A DNA stretch of 64,000 nt, from positions 124,001-188,000 of the forward strand of contig NZ_REFH01000008.1 of NCBI RefSeq assembly GCF_003688495.1, written 5' to 3'. Made by a program: the position numbers and the translations under genes. Below the pieces are notes generated by a model. It saw only the letters and a list, made by a program, of their open reading frames with translations, made no database searches and had not been told where the DNA came from. Shown one piece after another: positions 44,857 to 50,332 of this stretch; within the stretch, counting starts at the first letter, position 1; the number at the start of each line of letters is the position of its first letter. This DNA is from Flavobacterium weaverense. GTDB lineage: Bacteria > Bacteroidota > Bacteroidia > Flavobacteriales > Flavobacteriaceae.

Positions 44857-45504
44857 TTATTGAATGTAAATGTTACTAGCTATTTTATTTGAAATCATAA
44901 TTTCTTTCGTTCCAACTTTTATTCTGTAAGAGGAATCAAAACTTTCCTTCTCTATAATTTGAACATGTGAACCCAAAGCAATTTCTTGCTTGTCCAAATA
45001 TTTCAAAAATTCAGAAGAAGTGTCTTTTACTCCCACGCAAATTCCTGATTCATTTTTTTCTAATTCAGAAAGAAGTCTTTTTTCCACTTTTACAATTCTT
45101 CCATTTGCATCGGGAATAGGATCTCCGTGTGGATCTTCAGTAGGATTTCCAAGAAAATCATCTAACTTATTAATCAATTTCTCCGATTTTATATGTTCTA
45201 ATTGCTCGGCGACATCATGAACCTCATCCCAAGAAAAATCTAGTTTTTCAACTAAAAAGCATTCCCAGAGACGGTGTTTTCTAACAATCATCTTTGCTGC
45301 TAACAGTCCTTGTTCAGTTAAGGAAACGCCTTGATATTTTATATAATTGATTAAATCTTTCTCTGCTAATTTTTTTAGCATATCAGTAACTGATGACGCT
45401 TTAGTTTCCATTTTTTCAGCAATTGCATTTGTACTAACTGCACCATCTGAAACTGCGTTTAAGTGATATATAGTTTTAAGATAATTCTCTTCTGAATAAG
45501 TCAT
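44857..45504 (-). CDS. DtxR/MntR-family metal-dependent repressor
   Basis: 215 residues. N-terminal winged helix-turn-helix (about 1-65: YSEENYLKTIYHL, TNAIAEKMETKASSVTDMLKKLAEKDLI), dimerisation and metal-binding domain (about 66-140: RKHRLWECFLVEKLDFSWDEVHDVAEQLEHI, with His/Glu/Cys ligands), and a C-terminal FeoA/SH3-like domain (about 150-215). It resembles Mn2+/Fe2+-responsive regulators. Sitting between an Nramp gene and a ZIP gene on one strand, it probably represses metal uptake when metal is plentiful. Confidence 0.9.
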   Translation of the reverse strand: MTYSEENYLKTIYHLNAVSDGAVSTNAIAEKMETKASSVTDMLKKLAEKDLINYIKYQGVSLTEQGLLAAKMIVRKHRLWECFLVEKLDFSWDEVHDVAEQLEHIKSEKLINKLDDFLGNPTEDPHGDPIPDANGRIVKVEKRLLSELEKNESGICVGVKDTSSEFLKYLDKQEIALGSHVQIIEKESFDSSYRIKVGTKEIMISNKIASNIYIQ

Positions 45505-45640: not shown

Positions 45641-47512
45641 TTAATTTTTGACGATTAGTAACGGAATAGAAATTTTATGTCTCAGTTTATCAACTGTAGT
45701 TCCGAAGATTAAATCTTTAAATCCTGTGTGGCCGTGTGTTCCCATAACTAAAATATCAAAATTTTCTTTGTTAATGATTGTTGGAATTGTTTTGGCTGGA
45801 TCTCCAAAACCTAGTTTTGTACTAACCGTAAATCCTCTTGCTGTCAACATTTCTTTATATTCATTTAATAATTTTTCGTCAATTAATGTTTCATGATCAT
45901 CTACTTTTTCACCGTACACCATTGCTCCTACCGTTTCTACGATATGTATTAAAGTATATTCTGCCGACTTTCCTCCTAATTCAAAAGCACTATTTAAAGC
46001 CACTTCGTCTGAATCAGAAAAATCTACTGTTACTGCAATATTTTTATGCGTCAATGTGCTCGATTCCTCAAATTTTAATTTTAGATTATGAGGTGAATGA
46101 TTTTGGATATCAATTTTTGATTTAGAAACAAAAGGTTTGAAAATGATATACAAAAGCAATACTAAAAATGCCAAGGCCAAAGGAACAACTGTCAACCAAA
46201 GAATAATTGGACTCTCCGAATTTTCTAACCATCCATTTATTTCGTCATAAACCAATTTTATATTTAGTGAAACGATTATTAACGCAACAGACCAGCCCGC
46301 AATTTGAGTGATTTTACTAATGTGAAATCCCTTCATTTTTGTTTTATCGCTGACAAAATGAATTAGCGGAATAATTGCAAAACCCAACTGTAAGCTTAAA
46401 ATCACTTGACTAAAAATCAGTAATTTTCCAGTCACTCCATCACCAAAAATACTAATCACGATAACAGCAGGAACAATCGCAATTAATCGCGTAATTATTC
46501 TACGAACCCAAGGCTGAATCCTTAAATTCAGATAGCCTTCCATTATAATTTGGCCCGCTAATGTTCCTGTAACTGTTGAACTTTGTCCTGCAGCAATCAA
46601 TGCAACCGCAAATAATATAGGTGCCCATTTAGTTCCTAACAGCGGTGCTAAAAACTTATGCGCATCTTGAATTTCAGCCACTTCGTGCATTCCGCTTTTA
46701 TAAAATGTGGCTGCTGCCAAAATTAAAATAGCGGCATTTACAAAAAACGCCAAATTCAAAGCAATTGTTGAATCAATAAAATTGTATTTAATAGCTTGCT
46801 TAATTCCTTTTGGAGTTCGGTCAAATTTTCTGGTTTGCACCAATGAGGAATGTAAGTATAAATTGTGCGGCATTACGGTTGCACCAATAATTCCAATAGC
46901 AATATACAACGCAGCTTCATTTGGCATCGAAGGAATTAATCCATACAAAACTTTATCTAATTCTGGCTGTGCAAAGAACATTTCAAATACAAATGAAACT
47001 CCAATAATTAATACCAAAACAATGATAAAGGCTTCCATCTTCCGGATTCCTTTATTGATTAGAAACAGTAATAAAAACGTATCCAAAACCGTAATAATAA
47101 CACCTTCCATTAAAGGAATATCAAATAATAAATTGATACCAATAGCCATTCCTAAAACCTCAGCAAGATCACATGCAGCGATAGCGATTTCGGCAAGAAA
47201 GTATAAAATGTAATTTACAAATTTAGAATAAGTCGCTCTACTAGCTTGCGCTAAATCGAGTTGGGTTACAATTCCTAAACGAGCACTAAAACTTTGCAAC
47301 AGCAACGCCATTATATTACTCATCAGTAAAACCCATAGTAAAGCATAACCAAACTGGCTTCCTCCGGCAATATCAGTTGCCCAATTTCCAGGATCCATAT
47401 AGCCAACGCTAATCAGGTATGCAGGACCAAAAAAAGCAAGAATTTTTCTAAAAACTGATTTTTTATTTTGCGTCGAAACTGATCCGTGAACTTCCTCTAA
47501 TGATTTACCCAT
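45641..47512 (-). CDS. mntH: Nramp-family Mn/Fe transporter fused to a universal stress protein domain
   Basis: Proton-coupled divalent metal importer, 623 residues. The Nramp part (1-460, about 11 membrane segments) has the metal-site motifs Asp40-Pro-Gly-Asn43 (YMDPGNWATD) and Met214-Pro-His216 (VMPHNLYLHSS). Residues 489-623 are a complete UspA domain: NIAVTVDFSDSD, TLIHIVE, and the ATP-binding signature GTHGHTGFKDLIFGTTVDKL. The fusion suggests transport is modulated by nucleotide, an inference. The dtxR-type gene and the ZIP gene follow on the same strand. Confidence 0.92.
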   Translation of the reverse strand: MGKSLEEVHGSVSTQNKKSVFRKILAFFGPAYLISVGYMDPGNWATDIAGGSQFGYALLWVLLMSNIMALLLQSFSARLGIVTQLDLAQASRATYSKFVNYILYFLAEIAIAACDLAEVLGMAIGINLLFDIPLMEGVIITVLDTFLLLFLINKGIRKMEAFIIVLVLIIGVSFVFEMFFAQPELDKVLYGLIPSMPNEAALYIAIGIIGATVMPHNLYLHSSLVQTRKFDRTPKGIKQAIKYNFIDSTIALNLAFFVNAAILILAAATFYKSGMHEVAEIQDAHKFLAPLLGTKWAPILFAVALIAAGQSSTVTGTLAGQIIMEGYLNLRIQPWVRRIITRLIAIVPAVIVISIFGDGVTGKLLIFSQVILSLQLGFAIIPLIHFVSDKTKMKGFHISKITQIAGWSVALIIVSLNIKLVYDEINGWLENSESPIILWLTVVPLALAFLVLLLYIIFKPFVSKSKIDIQNHSPHNLKLKFEESSTLTHKNIAVTVDFSDSDEVALNSAFELGGKSAEYTLIHIVETVGAMVYGEKVDDHETLIDEKLLNEYKEMLTARGFTVSTKLGFGDPAKTIPTIINKENFDILVMGTHGHTGFKDLIFGTTVDKLRHKISIPLLIVKN

Positions 47513-47528
47513 TCATAACTATTTACTG

Positions 47529-47560
47529 CAAATATAAATATGTTTTTTTGTTTTATACAA
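47529..47560 (-). promoter_or_regulatory. Promoter of the Nramp-USP gene
   Basis: Minus strand: TTG (47560-47558), 21-bp spacer, TATATTTG (47536-47529), about 17 bp before the start codon. Its -33 end overlaps the -33 end of the divergent receptor promoter. Confidence 0.6.
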
Positions 47561-47577
47561 TATTATTTTTAGATTTG
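47547..47577 (+). promoter_or_regulatory. Consensus promoter of the TonB-dependent receptor operon
   Basis: TTTG (47547-47550), 19-bp spacer, TAGATTTG (47570-47577): a perfect match in sequence and spacing to the Bacteroidetes consensus TTTG-N19-TAnnTTTG. Confidence 0.75.
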
Positions 47578-47583
47578 CCTAAA
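47568..47583. promoter_or_regulatory. Candidate DtxR-family operator
   Basis: TTTAG-ATTTGC-CTAAA, a 5-bp perfect dyad with 6-bp spacer, 16 bp in all. It covers the whole -7 element of the receptor promoter and lies 7 bp upstream of the -33 of the divergent Nramp promoter. The nearby DtxR-type gene is the obvious candidate regulator. Sequence-only inference. Confidence 0.5.
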
Positions 47584-47615
47584 TTATAAATATATCCATA
47601 ACTAAAAATCAAACA

Positions 47616-49868
47616 TTGAAAAATCTATTACTGCTTTTTTGCATACTATTCACCATCATGATGACTAGTCAAACTACACTAAAAGGAAGCGTTTCTGCTG
47701 ACGGAATGCCATTGCCATTAGCAAATGTTATCATTAAAACCTTGAAAAAATCAACTGTCAGCGACTCCGAAGGGAAATTTAACATTAAAAACATTTCAAA
47801 AGGAACCTATGAAATCCAAGTTTCCTATACTGGTTTTAGACCAAAGTCACGTAATTTCACGGTTAGCGATAGTACTGATGTCTACTTGAATTTTGAACTT
47901 CAGGAAAATAATACTTTAGATGAAGTGGTAATCACTGGAACTTTAAAAGCTGTATCGCGTTTAGAAAGCCCTGTTCCTGTTGAAGTTTACAAACCTATTT
48001 TCTTTAAGAAAAATCCAACTGCAAACATTTTTGAAGCCTTGCAAAACGTGAATGGTGTCCGTCCGCAACTGAACTGTAATGTTTGTAACACTGGAGACAT
48101 TCACATCAATGGTCTTGAAGGCCCTTATACTTTGGTTTTGATTGATGGAATGCCTATCGTGAGCGGACTTTCAACGGTGTACGGACTTTCTGGAATTCCT
48201 AATTCTTTATTAGAACGCATCGAAATTGTGAAAGGTCCCGCTTCTTCTTTGTATGGAAGTGAAGCGGTGGGCGGTTTAATAAATATCATCACTAAGAATC
48301 CTAAAAACGCTCCCGTTTTTTCAGCTGATTCATTTTTAACGGATTGGGGCGAACTCAACGTTGACTTAGGATTTAAAGCAAATGTGACTGAAGACATCTC
48401 GATGTTAACTGGAATTAATTACTTTAACTACAGTAATCCAATAGACAACAACAACGATAATTTTACTGACTTAACCCTACAAGATCGAATCTCTGTTTTC
48501 CAGAAATGGAATTTTAATCGAAAAAATAACAAGCAATTCTCATTAGCAGGTCGTTATTTTTACGAAGATCGCTGGGGTGGCGAAATGCAGTGGGAGAAAA
48601 AATACCGTGGTGGAAACGAAGTCTATGGCGAGAGCATTTATACAAAGCGTTGGGAGTTGTTAGGCGCTTATGAATTGCCTATCGCTGAAAAAATGTTATT
48701 CTCTTTTTCCTATACGGATCACGATCAAAATTCGGTTTATGGAGATATTCCGTATTTAGCGAAACAGCGCATTGGTTTTGGGCAACTGACTTGGGACAAA
48801 AAATTAAACAATCACGATTTACTTTTTGGAACAGCTTTGCGCTATCAATATTACGATGATAATACGACTGCAACCGTGAAGGAAGACATCAACTGGATTC
48901 CAAGTTTATTTGTTCAAGACGAAGTTGCTTTTAATGAAAATCATAAAGTACTTCTAGGCGCTCGTTACGATTACAACCGCAACCACGGCTCTATTTTTAC
49001 TCCCAGATTAGCTTATAAATGGAAGCTGAACGACAATAATATTCTACGTTTCAATACGGGAACTGGTTTTAGAATTGTAAATCTATTTACTGAAGAACAT
49101 GCTGCTTTAACCGGTTCTCGTGATGTAATTGTTCTTGAAGAATTAAAGCCAGAACGCTCGTTTAATGTTAACTTGAACTATTTGAAAAAACTATACGCTC
49201 AAAATGGAACTTTCATAGGAATCGAAACAACCGCTTGGTACACTCGATTCAGTAATTCTATTATTCCTGATTATGACACAAATCCTAACCAAATTATTTA
49301 TAAAAATCTAGATGGTCACGCAGTTACTAAAGGAATAAGCTCTAATGTTGACTTCGTTTTCACAAATGGTTTGAAAATGATTTTGGGAGCTACTTTTATG
49401 GATGTTTCCAAGACAGAAAACAACATTATTACTAAGCAAATCTTAACAGAACAGTTCTCAGGAACTTGGGCGATTTCCTATCGAATCAATAAACTATTTT
49501 TAGATTTAGATTATACTGGAAATATTTATGGGCCAATGCGTTTACCAACTTTAGGTCCTTTAGATCCGAGAAAAGATTACTCACCAACTTGGAGCATCCA
49601 AAATATTCAGTTTACTTTTAATAAGTTCAAGAAAATCGAAATTTATACGGGTGTTAAAAATCTTTTAAATTGGACGCCAAATAAAGGAAATCCCTTTATT
49701 ATCGCAAGGGCAAATGATCCTTTTGACAAAAATGTACAATATGATGCTAATGGAAATGCACAAGCCACGGCTGATAATCCATACGCATTAACATTTGATC
49801 CAAATTATGTTTATGGCCCAAACCAAGGAATTAGAACTTTTCTAGGATTACGATACACTTTGAAATAA
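47616..49868 (+). CDS. TonB-dependent outer-membrane receptor
   Basis: 750 residues (TTG start, giving a normal signal peptide). Domain order: signal peptide to about 20, carboxypeptidase-regulatory-like domain (about 24-105), plug (about 120-235; NGLEGPYTLVLIDGMPIVSG and RIEIVKGPASSLYGSEAVGG), then a 22-strand-type barrel ending in Leu-Arg-Tyr-Thr-Leu-Lys. The plug holds two Cys (NCNVCNTGD) that could bind metal. The substrate is probably a metal chelate or metal-binding cofactor, judging from the divergent Nramp gene and a shared operator; not proved. Confidence 0.9.
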   Translation: MKNLLLLFCILFTIMMTSQTTLKGSVSADGMPLPLANVIIKTLKKSTVSDSEGKFNIKNISKGTYEIQVSYTGFRPKSRNFTVSDSTDVYLNFELQENNTLDEVVITGTLKAVSRLESPVPVEVYKPIFFKKNPTANIFEALQNVNGVRPQLNCNVCNTGDIHINGLEGPYTLVLIDGMPIVSGLSTVYGLSGIPNSLLERIEIVKGPASSLYGSEAVGGLINIITKNPKNAPVFSADSFLTDWGELNVDLGFKANVTEDISMLTGINYFNYSNPIDNNNDNFTDLTLQDRISVFQKWNFNRKNNKQFSLAGRYFYEDRWGGEMQWEKKYRGGNEVYGESIYTKRWELLGAYELPIAEKMLFSFSYTDHDQNSVYGDIPYLAKQRIGFGQLTWDKKLNNHDLLFGTALRYQYYDDNTTATVKEDINWIPSLFVQDEVAFNENHKVLLGARYDYNRNHGSIFTPRLAYKWKLNDNNILRFNTGTGFRIVNLFTEEHAALTGSRDVIVLEELKPERSFNVNLNYLKKLYAQNGTFIGIETTAWYTRFSNSIIPDYDTNPNQIIYKNLDGHAVTKGISSNVDFVFTNGLKMILGATFMDVSKTENNIITKQILTEQFSGTWAISYRINKLFLDLDYTGNIYGPMRLPTLGPLDPRKDYSPTWSIQNIQFTFNKFKKIEIYTGVKNLLNWTPNKGNPFIIARANDPFDKNVQYDANGNAQATADNPYALTFDPNYVYGPNQGIRTFLGLRYTLK

Positions 49869-50332
49869 TGAAAAAAGCAATTTACATATTTGTATTGTTT
49901 CTTTGGGCAATTCCTTCGGGTTTTGCCCAATTGAACTTAAACACTTTTGAGCAAGCAGAACAGTTATCAAAGGTAAATCCAAAACCTATAGTTGTATTTA
50001 CGCATACAAATTGGTGTAAATATTGCAAAATGATGGAAAATGCTACGTTCAAAAACTCAAAAATTGTAGCAACGCTAAACGAACATTTCTATTTCATTTC
50101 ATTTGATGCAGAAACAAAACAAGACATCGTTTTCAATAATCATACTTTTCAATTCCAACCGAACGGAACAAATACTGGAGTTCATGAATTAGCGACAGCA
50201 TTAGCGACAATAGACAATCAGGTGATTTATCCTAGCTTGACAATATTAGATTATGATAACTCCATTATATTACAACAAGCTTCCTTTCTTTCGGCGAAAG
50301 CCTTACTGCTTATCCTTGACAAACTGAAATAA
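49868..50332 (+). CDS. Thioredoxin-like exported protein
   Basis: 154 residues with a signal peptide (cleavage near GFAQ). The thioredoxin fold has the redox motif Trp-Cys-Lys-Tyr-Cys (HTNWCKYCKMMENATF), like thiol:disulfide proteins of the DUF255/Thioredoxin_7 kind, and a conserved cis-Pro segment (VIYPSLTILD). It shares one base with the receptor stop (TAATG), so the two are cotranslated. It may keep receptor or ligand thiols reduced; inference. Confidence 0.85.
   Translation: MKKAIYIFVLFLWAIPSGFAQLNLNTFEQAEQLSKVNPKPIVVFTHTNWCKYCKMMENATFKNSKIVATLNEHFYFISFDAETKQDIVFNNHTFQFQPNGTNTGVHELATALATIDNQVIYPSLTILDYDNSIILQQASFLSAKALLLILDKLK

What the first reader, a model, noticed from the sequence alone, without database searches (positions are those of the whole stretch)
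47520..47616. Overlapping divergent promoters with a palindrome that covers the receptor -7 element
In about 60 bp the Nramp-USP gene and a TonB-dependent receptor operon diverge. The two promoter cores overlap: receptor TTTG-N19-TAGATTTG at 47547-47577 on plus, Nramp TTG-N21-TATATTTG at 47560-47529 on minus. TTTAG-N6-CTAAA (47568-47583) covers the receptor -7 and lies 7 bp behind the Nramp -33. A DtxR-family regulator gene is directly downstream of the Nramp gene. Metal-loaded DtxR could block the receptor and, by steric effect, shift polymerase to or from the Nramp gene. Seen: motifs and spacing. Inferred: regulator identity and effect.
Basis: partly seen in the sequence, partly recalled or inferred. 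Interest (0 to 1): 0.62.

Follow-up and report, generated by a model that had tools for sequence, protein, structure and literature searches.

The report
Shared manganese switch between two promoters
A short palindrome between two metal-uptake genes of a Flavobacterium looks like the binding site of the manganese sensor MntR; it overlaps the start of one promoter and abuts the other, it is conserved in relatives, and it points to a little-studied outer-membrane receptor as part of manganese uptake.

Summary
It stands before 80 of 80 same-genus receptors, the window's own included (79 exact, one with a mismatch), and before mntH or mntR-mntH in 59 of 80 Nramp loci. Twenty upstream regions of receptor paralogs have no exact copy. 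The adjacent DtxR-family gene is MntR/SloR-like, and weak half-sites at 22-bp steps match the published SloR site period. The receptor -7 lies inside the dyad in 72 of 80. Where receptor and mntH lie 1-6 kb apart, both keep a dyad: the receptor copy keeps the -7 (28 of 28), the mntH copy does not (0 of 28) but stays 27-29 bp from the mntH -7. So Mn-MntR most likely represses both genes from one site; a polymerase switch is not needed. The mntH -33 is weak (5 of 16). The receptor has a conserved plug CxxC and in 57 of 80 loci a thioredoxin-fold gene was found after it, like an MntR-controlled module reported in Stenotrophomonas in 2026. Binding and expression were not tested.

The parts
47568..47583 (.). 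Primary MntR-type operator, dyad TTTAG-ATTTGC-CTAAA; predicted -14 to +2 of the receptor and -44 to -59 of mntH
   Evidence: before 80 of 80 same-genus receptors, own included, and before mntH/mntR in 59 of 80 loci; +1 placed by the -12 to -5 position of TAnnTTTG in F. psychrophilum (PMC9723704, passages), computed
47570..47577 (+). Receptor -7 element TAGATTTG, wholly inside the dyad
   Evidence: TANNTTTG inside the dyad toward the receptor in 72 of 80
47547..47550 (+). Candidate receptor -33 element TTTG, spacing N19
   Evidence: TTTG at 17-23 spacing in 12 of 35 non-redundant promoters, 9 of them at exactly 19; kept in L106-L113
47529..47536 (-). mntH -7 element TATATTTG
   Evidence: TANNTTTG begins 25-32 bp past the dyad in 56 of 57 mntH upstream rows, some of which may be the same genome under two handles; the exception is L005
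47558..47560 (-). Candidate mntH -33 TTG (weak)
   Evidence: TTG at 17-23 spacing in only 5 of 16 shared regions, but in 26 of 28 split ones
47591..47606 (.). Candidate secondary, degenerate MntR site 23 bp from the primary (8 of 10 dyad letters)
   Evidence: dyad score peaks at +22 in 43 non-redundant receptor promoters and 38 mntR promoters
45641..47512 (-). mntH: Nramp Mn/Fe importer with C-terminal Usp domain
   Evidence: Pfam PF01566 and PF00582; NCBIfam NF001923 MntH, 593.3 bits against cut-off 430
44857..45504 (-). mntR: DtxR-family regulator with FeoA domain, likely reader of the dyad
   Evidence: Pfam PF01325, PF02742, PF04023; best solved relatives 5zr4, SloR 5cvi, ScaR 3hrs; ligand residues
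44036..44854 (-). ZIP-family transporter, 2 bp downstream of mntR
   Evidence: Pfam PF02535
47616..49868 (+). TonB-dependent receptor with CxxC (CNVC) in the plug
   Evidence: Pfam Plug and barrel; CxxC at this place in 80 of 80 same-genus receptors, the only CxxC in each (L117 seen only up to an in-frame stop)
49868..50332 (+). Thioredoxin-fold protein with CKYC, overlaps the last base of the receptor stop
   Evidence: Pfam Thioredoxin_7 and DsbH-like; homolog found after the receptor in 57 of 80 loci, each with a CxxC

Best explanation
The dyad is the operator of the Mn(II)-responsive regulator MntR (window 44857-45504). With Mn bound, an MntR dimer sits on 47568-47583. It covers the receptor -7 and start site, so polymerase cannot open that promoter. 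The same dimer lies just behind the mntH -33 region (-44 to -59) and, perhaps helped by a second dimer on weak flanking half-sites 22-23 bp away, also represses mntH. When Mn falls, MntR leaves and both the outer-membrane receptor operon and the inner-membrane importer are made together. Shown by sequence: the dyad, its conservation, its overlap with the receptor -7, its fixed distance from the mntH -7, its link to mntR, and the MntR-type ligand residues. Inferred: that this protein binds it, that the metal is Mn, that the effect is repression at both promoters, and that the receptor imports Mn or an Mn complex.
For: Dyad before 80 of 80 same-genus receptors, own included, and 59 of 80 mntH/mntR upstream regions, with two rearranged controls and spacings 5 and 7 giving 0, 0, 1, 0. 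In a phylum sample TTAG-N6-CTAA stands before 61 of 69 receptor homologs (45 of 53 outside the genus) against 0-4 for three controls, in regions set by the open frame; with starts set by homology 54 of 69 against 0-3. No exact dyad in 20 paralogous receptor upstream regions, 15,520 bases. In the own genome this is the only exact TTTAGRYNNRYCTAAA outside a coding region. All 70 sampled genomes with the receptor have an MntR homolog, against 129 of 226 without it (relatedness not corrected). Natural experiment: 28 split loci keep a dyad at both genes, -7 inside the receptor copy 28 of 28, inside the mntH copy 0 of 28. E-x-x-E-H in 130 of 131 distinct homologs held here. Half-site period of 22 bp equals the 18-bp sites plus 4 bp published for SloR, a close solved relative (PMC12096823, passages).
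Against: No binding, transcript or metal data. 21 of the 80 Nramp loci show no exact dyad in the stretch searched; two of these hold under 150 bp upstream. The -7 inside the dyad is not universal: 8 of 80 same-genus receptors lack it, and only 6 of the 45 homologs with a dyad outside the genus have it. The box is upstream of the mntH -33, where a bound protein can activate as well as repress. Residue 7, Asp in ScaR/SloR, is Asn in 118 of 125 homologs, and the NCBIfam MntR cut-off is missed, so metal preference is not certain. The 28 split loci are probably mostly one lineage and not independent; no tree was made. The flanking site is weak in split mntH promoters. The one-mismatch sites of the genome barely exceed control.
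Confidence: 0.82

Rival explanations
1. Opposite effects from one site: Mn-MntR represses the receptor by covering its -7 but activates or frees mntH by removing a competing polymerase or contacting polymerase from about -50.
For: The two promoter cores overlap; the dyad stands at -44 to -59 of mntH; B. subtilis MntR can activate efflux genes from sites of which one overlaps the -35 (PMC11275975, passages).
Against: mntH keeps the dyad when the receptor promoter is 1-6 kb away, so competition is not its purpose; mntH is an importer, and Mn-dependent activation of import would run against homeostasis; S. maltophilia mntH is derepressed without MntR (PMC13217887, Discussion).
Confidence: 0.1
2. 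The dyad is read by another metal regulator (Fur, Zur or PerR type), and its closeness to mntR is incidental.
For: A Fur-family gene lies beside mntH in the split locus L006; the window also holds FeoB and ZIP genes.
Against: The dyad tracks mntR and mntH across Bacteroidota, often directly before mntR itself (41 of 43 mntR-first operons); 70 of 70 receptor genomes have MntR; the 22-bp half-site period is that of SloR.
Confidence: 0.05
3. The palindrome is an AT-rich chance by-product of the -7 element and has no regulator.
For: The loose pattern is near the control rate genome-wide, 46 against 35.
Against: The half-site not needed by the -7 (CTAAA) is exact in 79 of 80 receptors, and separate mntH dyads have no -7 at all.
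Confidence: 0.02

Closest known systems
SloR recognition elements at mntH and sloABC, Streptococcus mutans (PMC12096823, passages seen)
   Same: DtxR-family Mn regulator, full-length similar to the window protein; 6-6-6 inverted repeats; a further weaker site 4 bp away, i.e. 22-bp steps; site over the core promoter of mntH
   Different: One-way promoters with -10 and -35 elements; no TonB-dependent receptor in the passages seen; letters of the repeats differ
MntR-controlled TBDR-pTFP module, Stenotrophomonas maltophilia Sm18 (PMC13217887: outline, abstract, sections 3.3, 3.7, Discussion and passages seen)
   Same: MntR box at a TonB-dependent receptor with CxxC (CQNC) in the plug, followed by a thioredoxin-fold gene, close to mntR and mntH; derepressed without mntR
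   Different: MntR box lies between -10 and -35 and receptor and mntH have separate boxes; synteny shown there for Lysobacterales, Sphingomonadales and Opitutales; a word search for Bacteroid gave 0; here the motif is CNVC/CGVC and one box serves both genes
B. subtilis MntR at mntH and mneP (PMC11275975, passages seen)
   Same: Doorstop repression of uptake promoters by MntR; cooperative 18-bp sites, four on 84 bp
   Different: MntR there lacks the FeoA domain (recalled); the multi-site array serves activation of efflux genes
MnoT, TonB-dependent Mn transporter of Burkholderia (PMC9334652, one passage seen)
   Same: TonB-dependent outer-membrane Mn import
   Different: Works with the secreted Mn-binding protein TseM; sequence relation to this receptor not tested

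Membership tests
MntR/ScaR/SloR-type DtxR-family regulators | DNA-binding, dimerisation and C-terminal FeoA/SH3-like domains | tested here: met
   Pfam PF01325, PF02742, PF04023 above cut-offs
MntR/ScaR/SloR-type DtxR-family regulators | E-x-x-E-H ligands in place of the C-x-x-E-H of Fe-type DtxR/IdeR (ligand roles recalled) | tested here: met
   Window residues 100, 103, 104; E, E, H in 130, 131 and 131 of 131 distinct homologs
MntR/ScaR/SloR-type DtxR-family regulators | Asp at the position of ScaR D7 / MntR D8 (ligand role recalled) | tested here: not met
   Asn in the window and in 118 of 125 homologs, Asp in 7
NCBIfam equivalog MntR (NF047407) | Score above the curated cut-off | tested here: not met
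   161.5 bits against 350; so described as MntR-like, not filed as that equivalog
MntR-regulated promoter | Conserved dyad before mntH and mntR, absent from unrelated genes | tested here: met
   misses told under evidence against
MntR-regulated promoter | Mn-dependent binding and repression | not testable with these tools
   Needs EMSA and transcripts
TBDR-pTFP Mn module of Stenotrophomonas | CxxC in the receptor plug plus thioredoxin-fold gene in synteny under an MntR box | tested here: met
   CxxC in 80 of 80; thioredoxin-fold homolog found after the receptor in 57 of 80 loci; MntR-type dyad
TBDR-pTFP Mn module of Stenotrophomonas | Same protein clade (CQNC lineage) | not tested
   The Stenotrophomonas proteins were not obtained; the plug motif is CNVC here, not CQNC

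The most novel reading that the evidence does not exclude
One 16-bp sequence is operator, receptor -7 and mntH upstream site at once, and is the only MntR site of the genome. It controls a dedicated manganese route through both membranes that is widespread in Bacteroidota: a receptor with a redox-active CxxC plug, a periplasmic thioredoxin that resets it, and MntH. When a cassette splits the locus, the double-duty site is duplicated and each copy keeps only the job it still has.
Probability: 0.35. Interest if true: 0.68.

Novelty: new variant of a known kind. Interest (0 to 1): 0.55.

Why it matters
How manganese crosses the outer membrane is known in few cases, and I found no description of Mn-responsive promoter control in Bacteroidota in the searches made (listings, plus passages of one paper). 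The footprint names a likely regulator, its site and a receptor that should carry Mn. It also gives natural variants (shared site, split sites, -7 inside or outside the site) with which to test how one operator serves two promoters.

Tried and rejected
Loose pattern TTTAG-N6-CTAAA as stand-alone evidence: rejected, 46 sites against 35 in the reversed control. A wider MntR regulon in the own genome: of 40 sites with up to one mismatch (30 in control), 28 lie inside a frame of 150 aa or more; besides the finding's own site 11 remain, some inside shorter frames, and none stood before a metal-uptake gene that I recognised by eye from the first residues. Polymerase shifting between promoters: see rivals. 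A fixed -33 at both promoters: rejected as a general feature. Receptor structure: the AlphaFold2 model from 10 sequences had mean pLDDT 59 with most of the plug below 50, so the place of the CxxC could not be judged and no fold search was run. A plasmid search for a proteobacterial receptor of this type gave 9 records at 24-40% identity, all from Bacteroidota by my reading of the genus names.

First receptor start estimates were off for four loci whose N-terminus did not align (L126, L169, L170, L173); recounted from the open frame. With fixed starts the shorter TTAG-N6-CTAA is found in 75 of 80. In one search, 13 of 80 loci fell in no arrangement class. In the phylum set 4 of 69 loci repeat loci of the same-genus set and 16 of 69 are same-genus. 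In one search the dyads printed for L226 and L227 look coding and were not taken as operators.

Full report
OBSERVATION. The sequence at 47513-47615 was read directly. The gap between start codons is 103 bp. Genes around it are an Nramp-Usp fusion, a DtxR-family regulator with FeoA domain, a ZIP transporter, and a TonB-dependent receptor followed by a thioredoxin-fold gene.

IS IT MORE THAN CHANCE? In one genome the bare dyad is not convincing: 46 sites against 35 for the reversed pattern. The tighter form TTTAGRYNNRYCTAAA occurs exactly twice in 3.4 Mb, here and inside what I recognise as a ribosomal protein gene. The case rests on comparison. I searched 121 genomes of the genus with the receptor, kept the 80 that have a match of at least 46% identity in that table, the window's own included, and fetched surroundings for the 50 that had no locus yet. 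All 80 have the dyad before the receptor, 79 exact and one (L136) with a mismatch. Upstream of mntH, or of mntR where mntR comes first, 59 of 80 loci fetched with the Nramp protein have the exact dyad within 300 bp; two rearranged controls and spacings of 5 and 7 gave 0, 0, 1 and 0. In 20 upstream regions of receptor paralogs there was no exact copy and one with a mismatch.

PHYLUM SAMPLE. In 296 genomes of the phylum, 70 have the receptor at E <= 1e-120. Of the 69 loci other than the window's, 16 are same-genus and 4 of these repeat loci counted above. TTAG-N6-CTAA stands before 61 of 69 when the region follows the open frame, against 0, 1 and 4 for three controls; outside the genus it is 45 of 53. 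With starts fixed by homology the count is 54 of 69 against 0, 1 and 3. A plug CxxC was found in 68 of 69; in L205 an in-frame stop ends the frame. All 70 receptor genomes have an MntR homolog at E <= 1e-25, against 129 of 226 others; this is not corrected for relatedness.

ARRANGEMENTS. Among the 80: 16 share one dyad between receptor and mntH as in the window, 23 share it between receptor and mntR, 28 are split, 13 were not classified. Shared boxes carry a receptor-directed -7 in 16 of 16 and 22 of 23, and none carries one in the other direction. In the split loci the receptor box has the -7 in 28 of 28 and the mntH box in 0 of 28, yet the mntH box keeps its distance to the mntH -7 (29 bp in 27, 27 bp in one). 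In L006, a split locus, the genes in between are a Fur-family regulator, a MerC-like protein, a CobW-type GTPase and an oxidoreductase. I read this as a double-duty site that was duplicated when the locus was split. That direction of change is inferred from the wider spread of the shared form; no tree was made, and the split loci are probably mostly one lineage.

EXCEPTIONS. Eight of 80 lack the -7 inside the dyad (L114, L129, L174-L178, L184). In five of them (L129, L174, L175, L176, L178) a TANNTTTG follows the dyad within about 15 bp, read by eye, so there the site lies between the promoter elements. Outside the genus the embedded -7 is found in 6 of 45 receptor promoters with a dyad (L189, L221, L225-L228). 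It recurs before mntR: 14 of 43 mntR-first operons. Overlap or close contact of operator and core promoter is thus common; exact coincidence with the -7 is mainly a feature of this genus.

REGULATOR. The protein is closest among solved structures to 5zr4, SloR and ScaR. It scores 161.5 bits on NCBIfam MntR NF047407, below the cut-off of 350. E-x-x-E-H is kept in 130 of 131 distinct homologs held here; the residue aligned with the ScaR/SloR Asp 7 is Asn in 118 of 125. Scoring the dyad at every offset from the primary site shows a peak at +22, with 7 or more of 10 letters in 25 of 38 mntR promoters and 17 of 43 receptor promoters. SloR sites are 18 bp (6-6-6) with 4 bp between them, i.e. the same 22-bp step, and bind cooperatively (PMC12096823, passages); B. 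subtilis mneP has four 18-bp sites on 84 bp (PMC11275975, passages). In the window the +23 site scores 8 of 10 and the -22 site 6 of 10; in split mntH promoters the flanking site is weak.

MECHANISM. TAnnTTTG lies at -12 to -5 in F. psychrophilum (PMC9723704, passages). That puts the receptor +1 at 47582 and the dyad at -14 to +2; mntH +1 at 47524 and the dyad at -44 to -59. Mn-MntR would block receptor promoter opening directly. At mntH it would act from just behind the -33, most likely as a repressor. Binding, metal and sign of regulation are inferred.

WHAT IS KNOWN. MntR control of a CxxC-plug receptor with a thioredoxin-fold partner was reported for S. maltophilia in 2026, with derepression in an mntR mutant (PMC13217887: outline, abstract, sections 3.3 and 3.7, Discussion, passages). 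A word search of its main text for Bacteroid gave 0. Five searches on Mn regulation in Bacteroidota, Flavobacterium or Riemerella listed no title or abstract start that describes this site or receptor; two searches showed 20 of 28 and 15 of 17 papers. One listed Mucilaginibacter genome paper names mntR only in a gene list (PMC8871858, passages). Absence from print is therefore not proven, and many subscription papers are not in the library.

VERDICT. Observation confirmed; regulator assignment supported and sharpened; the polymerase-shift idea not supported. A new variant of MntR control, with a good candidate for outer-membrane manganese import.

Noticed in passing
L006:2960-5926: Between mntH and the receptor in a split locus lies a cassette of Fur-family regulator, MerC-like protein, CobW-type GTPase and pyridine-nucleotide oxidoreductase, perhaps a zinc cassette inserted into a manganese locus.
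   Followed up: partly
window 44857-45504, residue 7: The residue aligned with the ScaR/SloR Asp 7 is Asn in the window MntR and in 118 of 125 homologs, although the other ligands are kept.
   Followed up: partly
window 47616-49868, residues 154-157: CNVC in the receptor plug: CxxC is present there in 80 of 80 same-genus receptors and down to 34% identity in the phylum sample.
   Followed up: partly
L230-L253: In many distant homologs the inner letters of the dyad are TTTAGYC-GRCTAAA instead of TTTAGAC-GTCTAAA, which may mean a shifted MntR specificity.
   Followed up: no
L164, L166, L168, L169, L170, L173: In these loci mntR and zip lie upstream of the receptor and no mntH is found in more than 5 kb fetched upstream, so the ZIP protein may take the place of MntH.
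   Followed up: no
L117 and L205: Receptor homologs with an in-frame stop codon (TGA, TAA).
   Followed up: no
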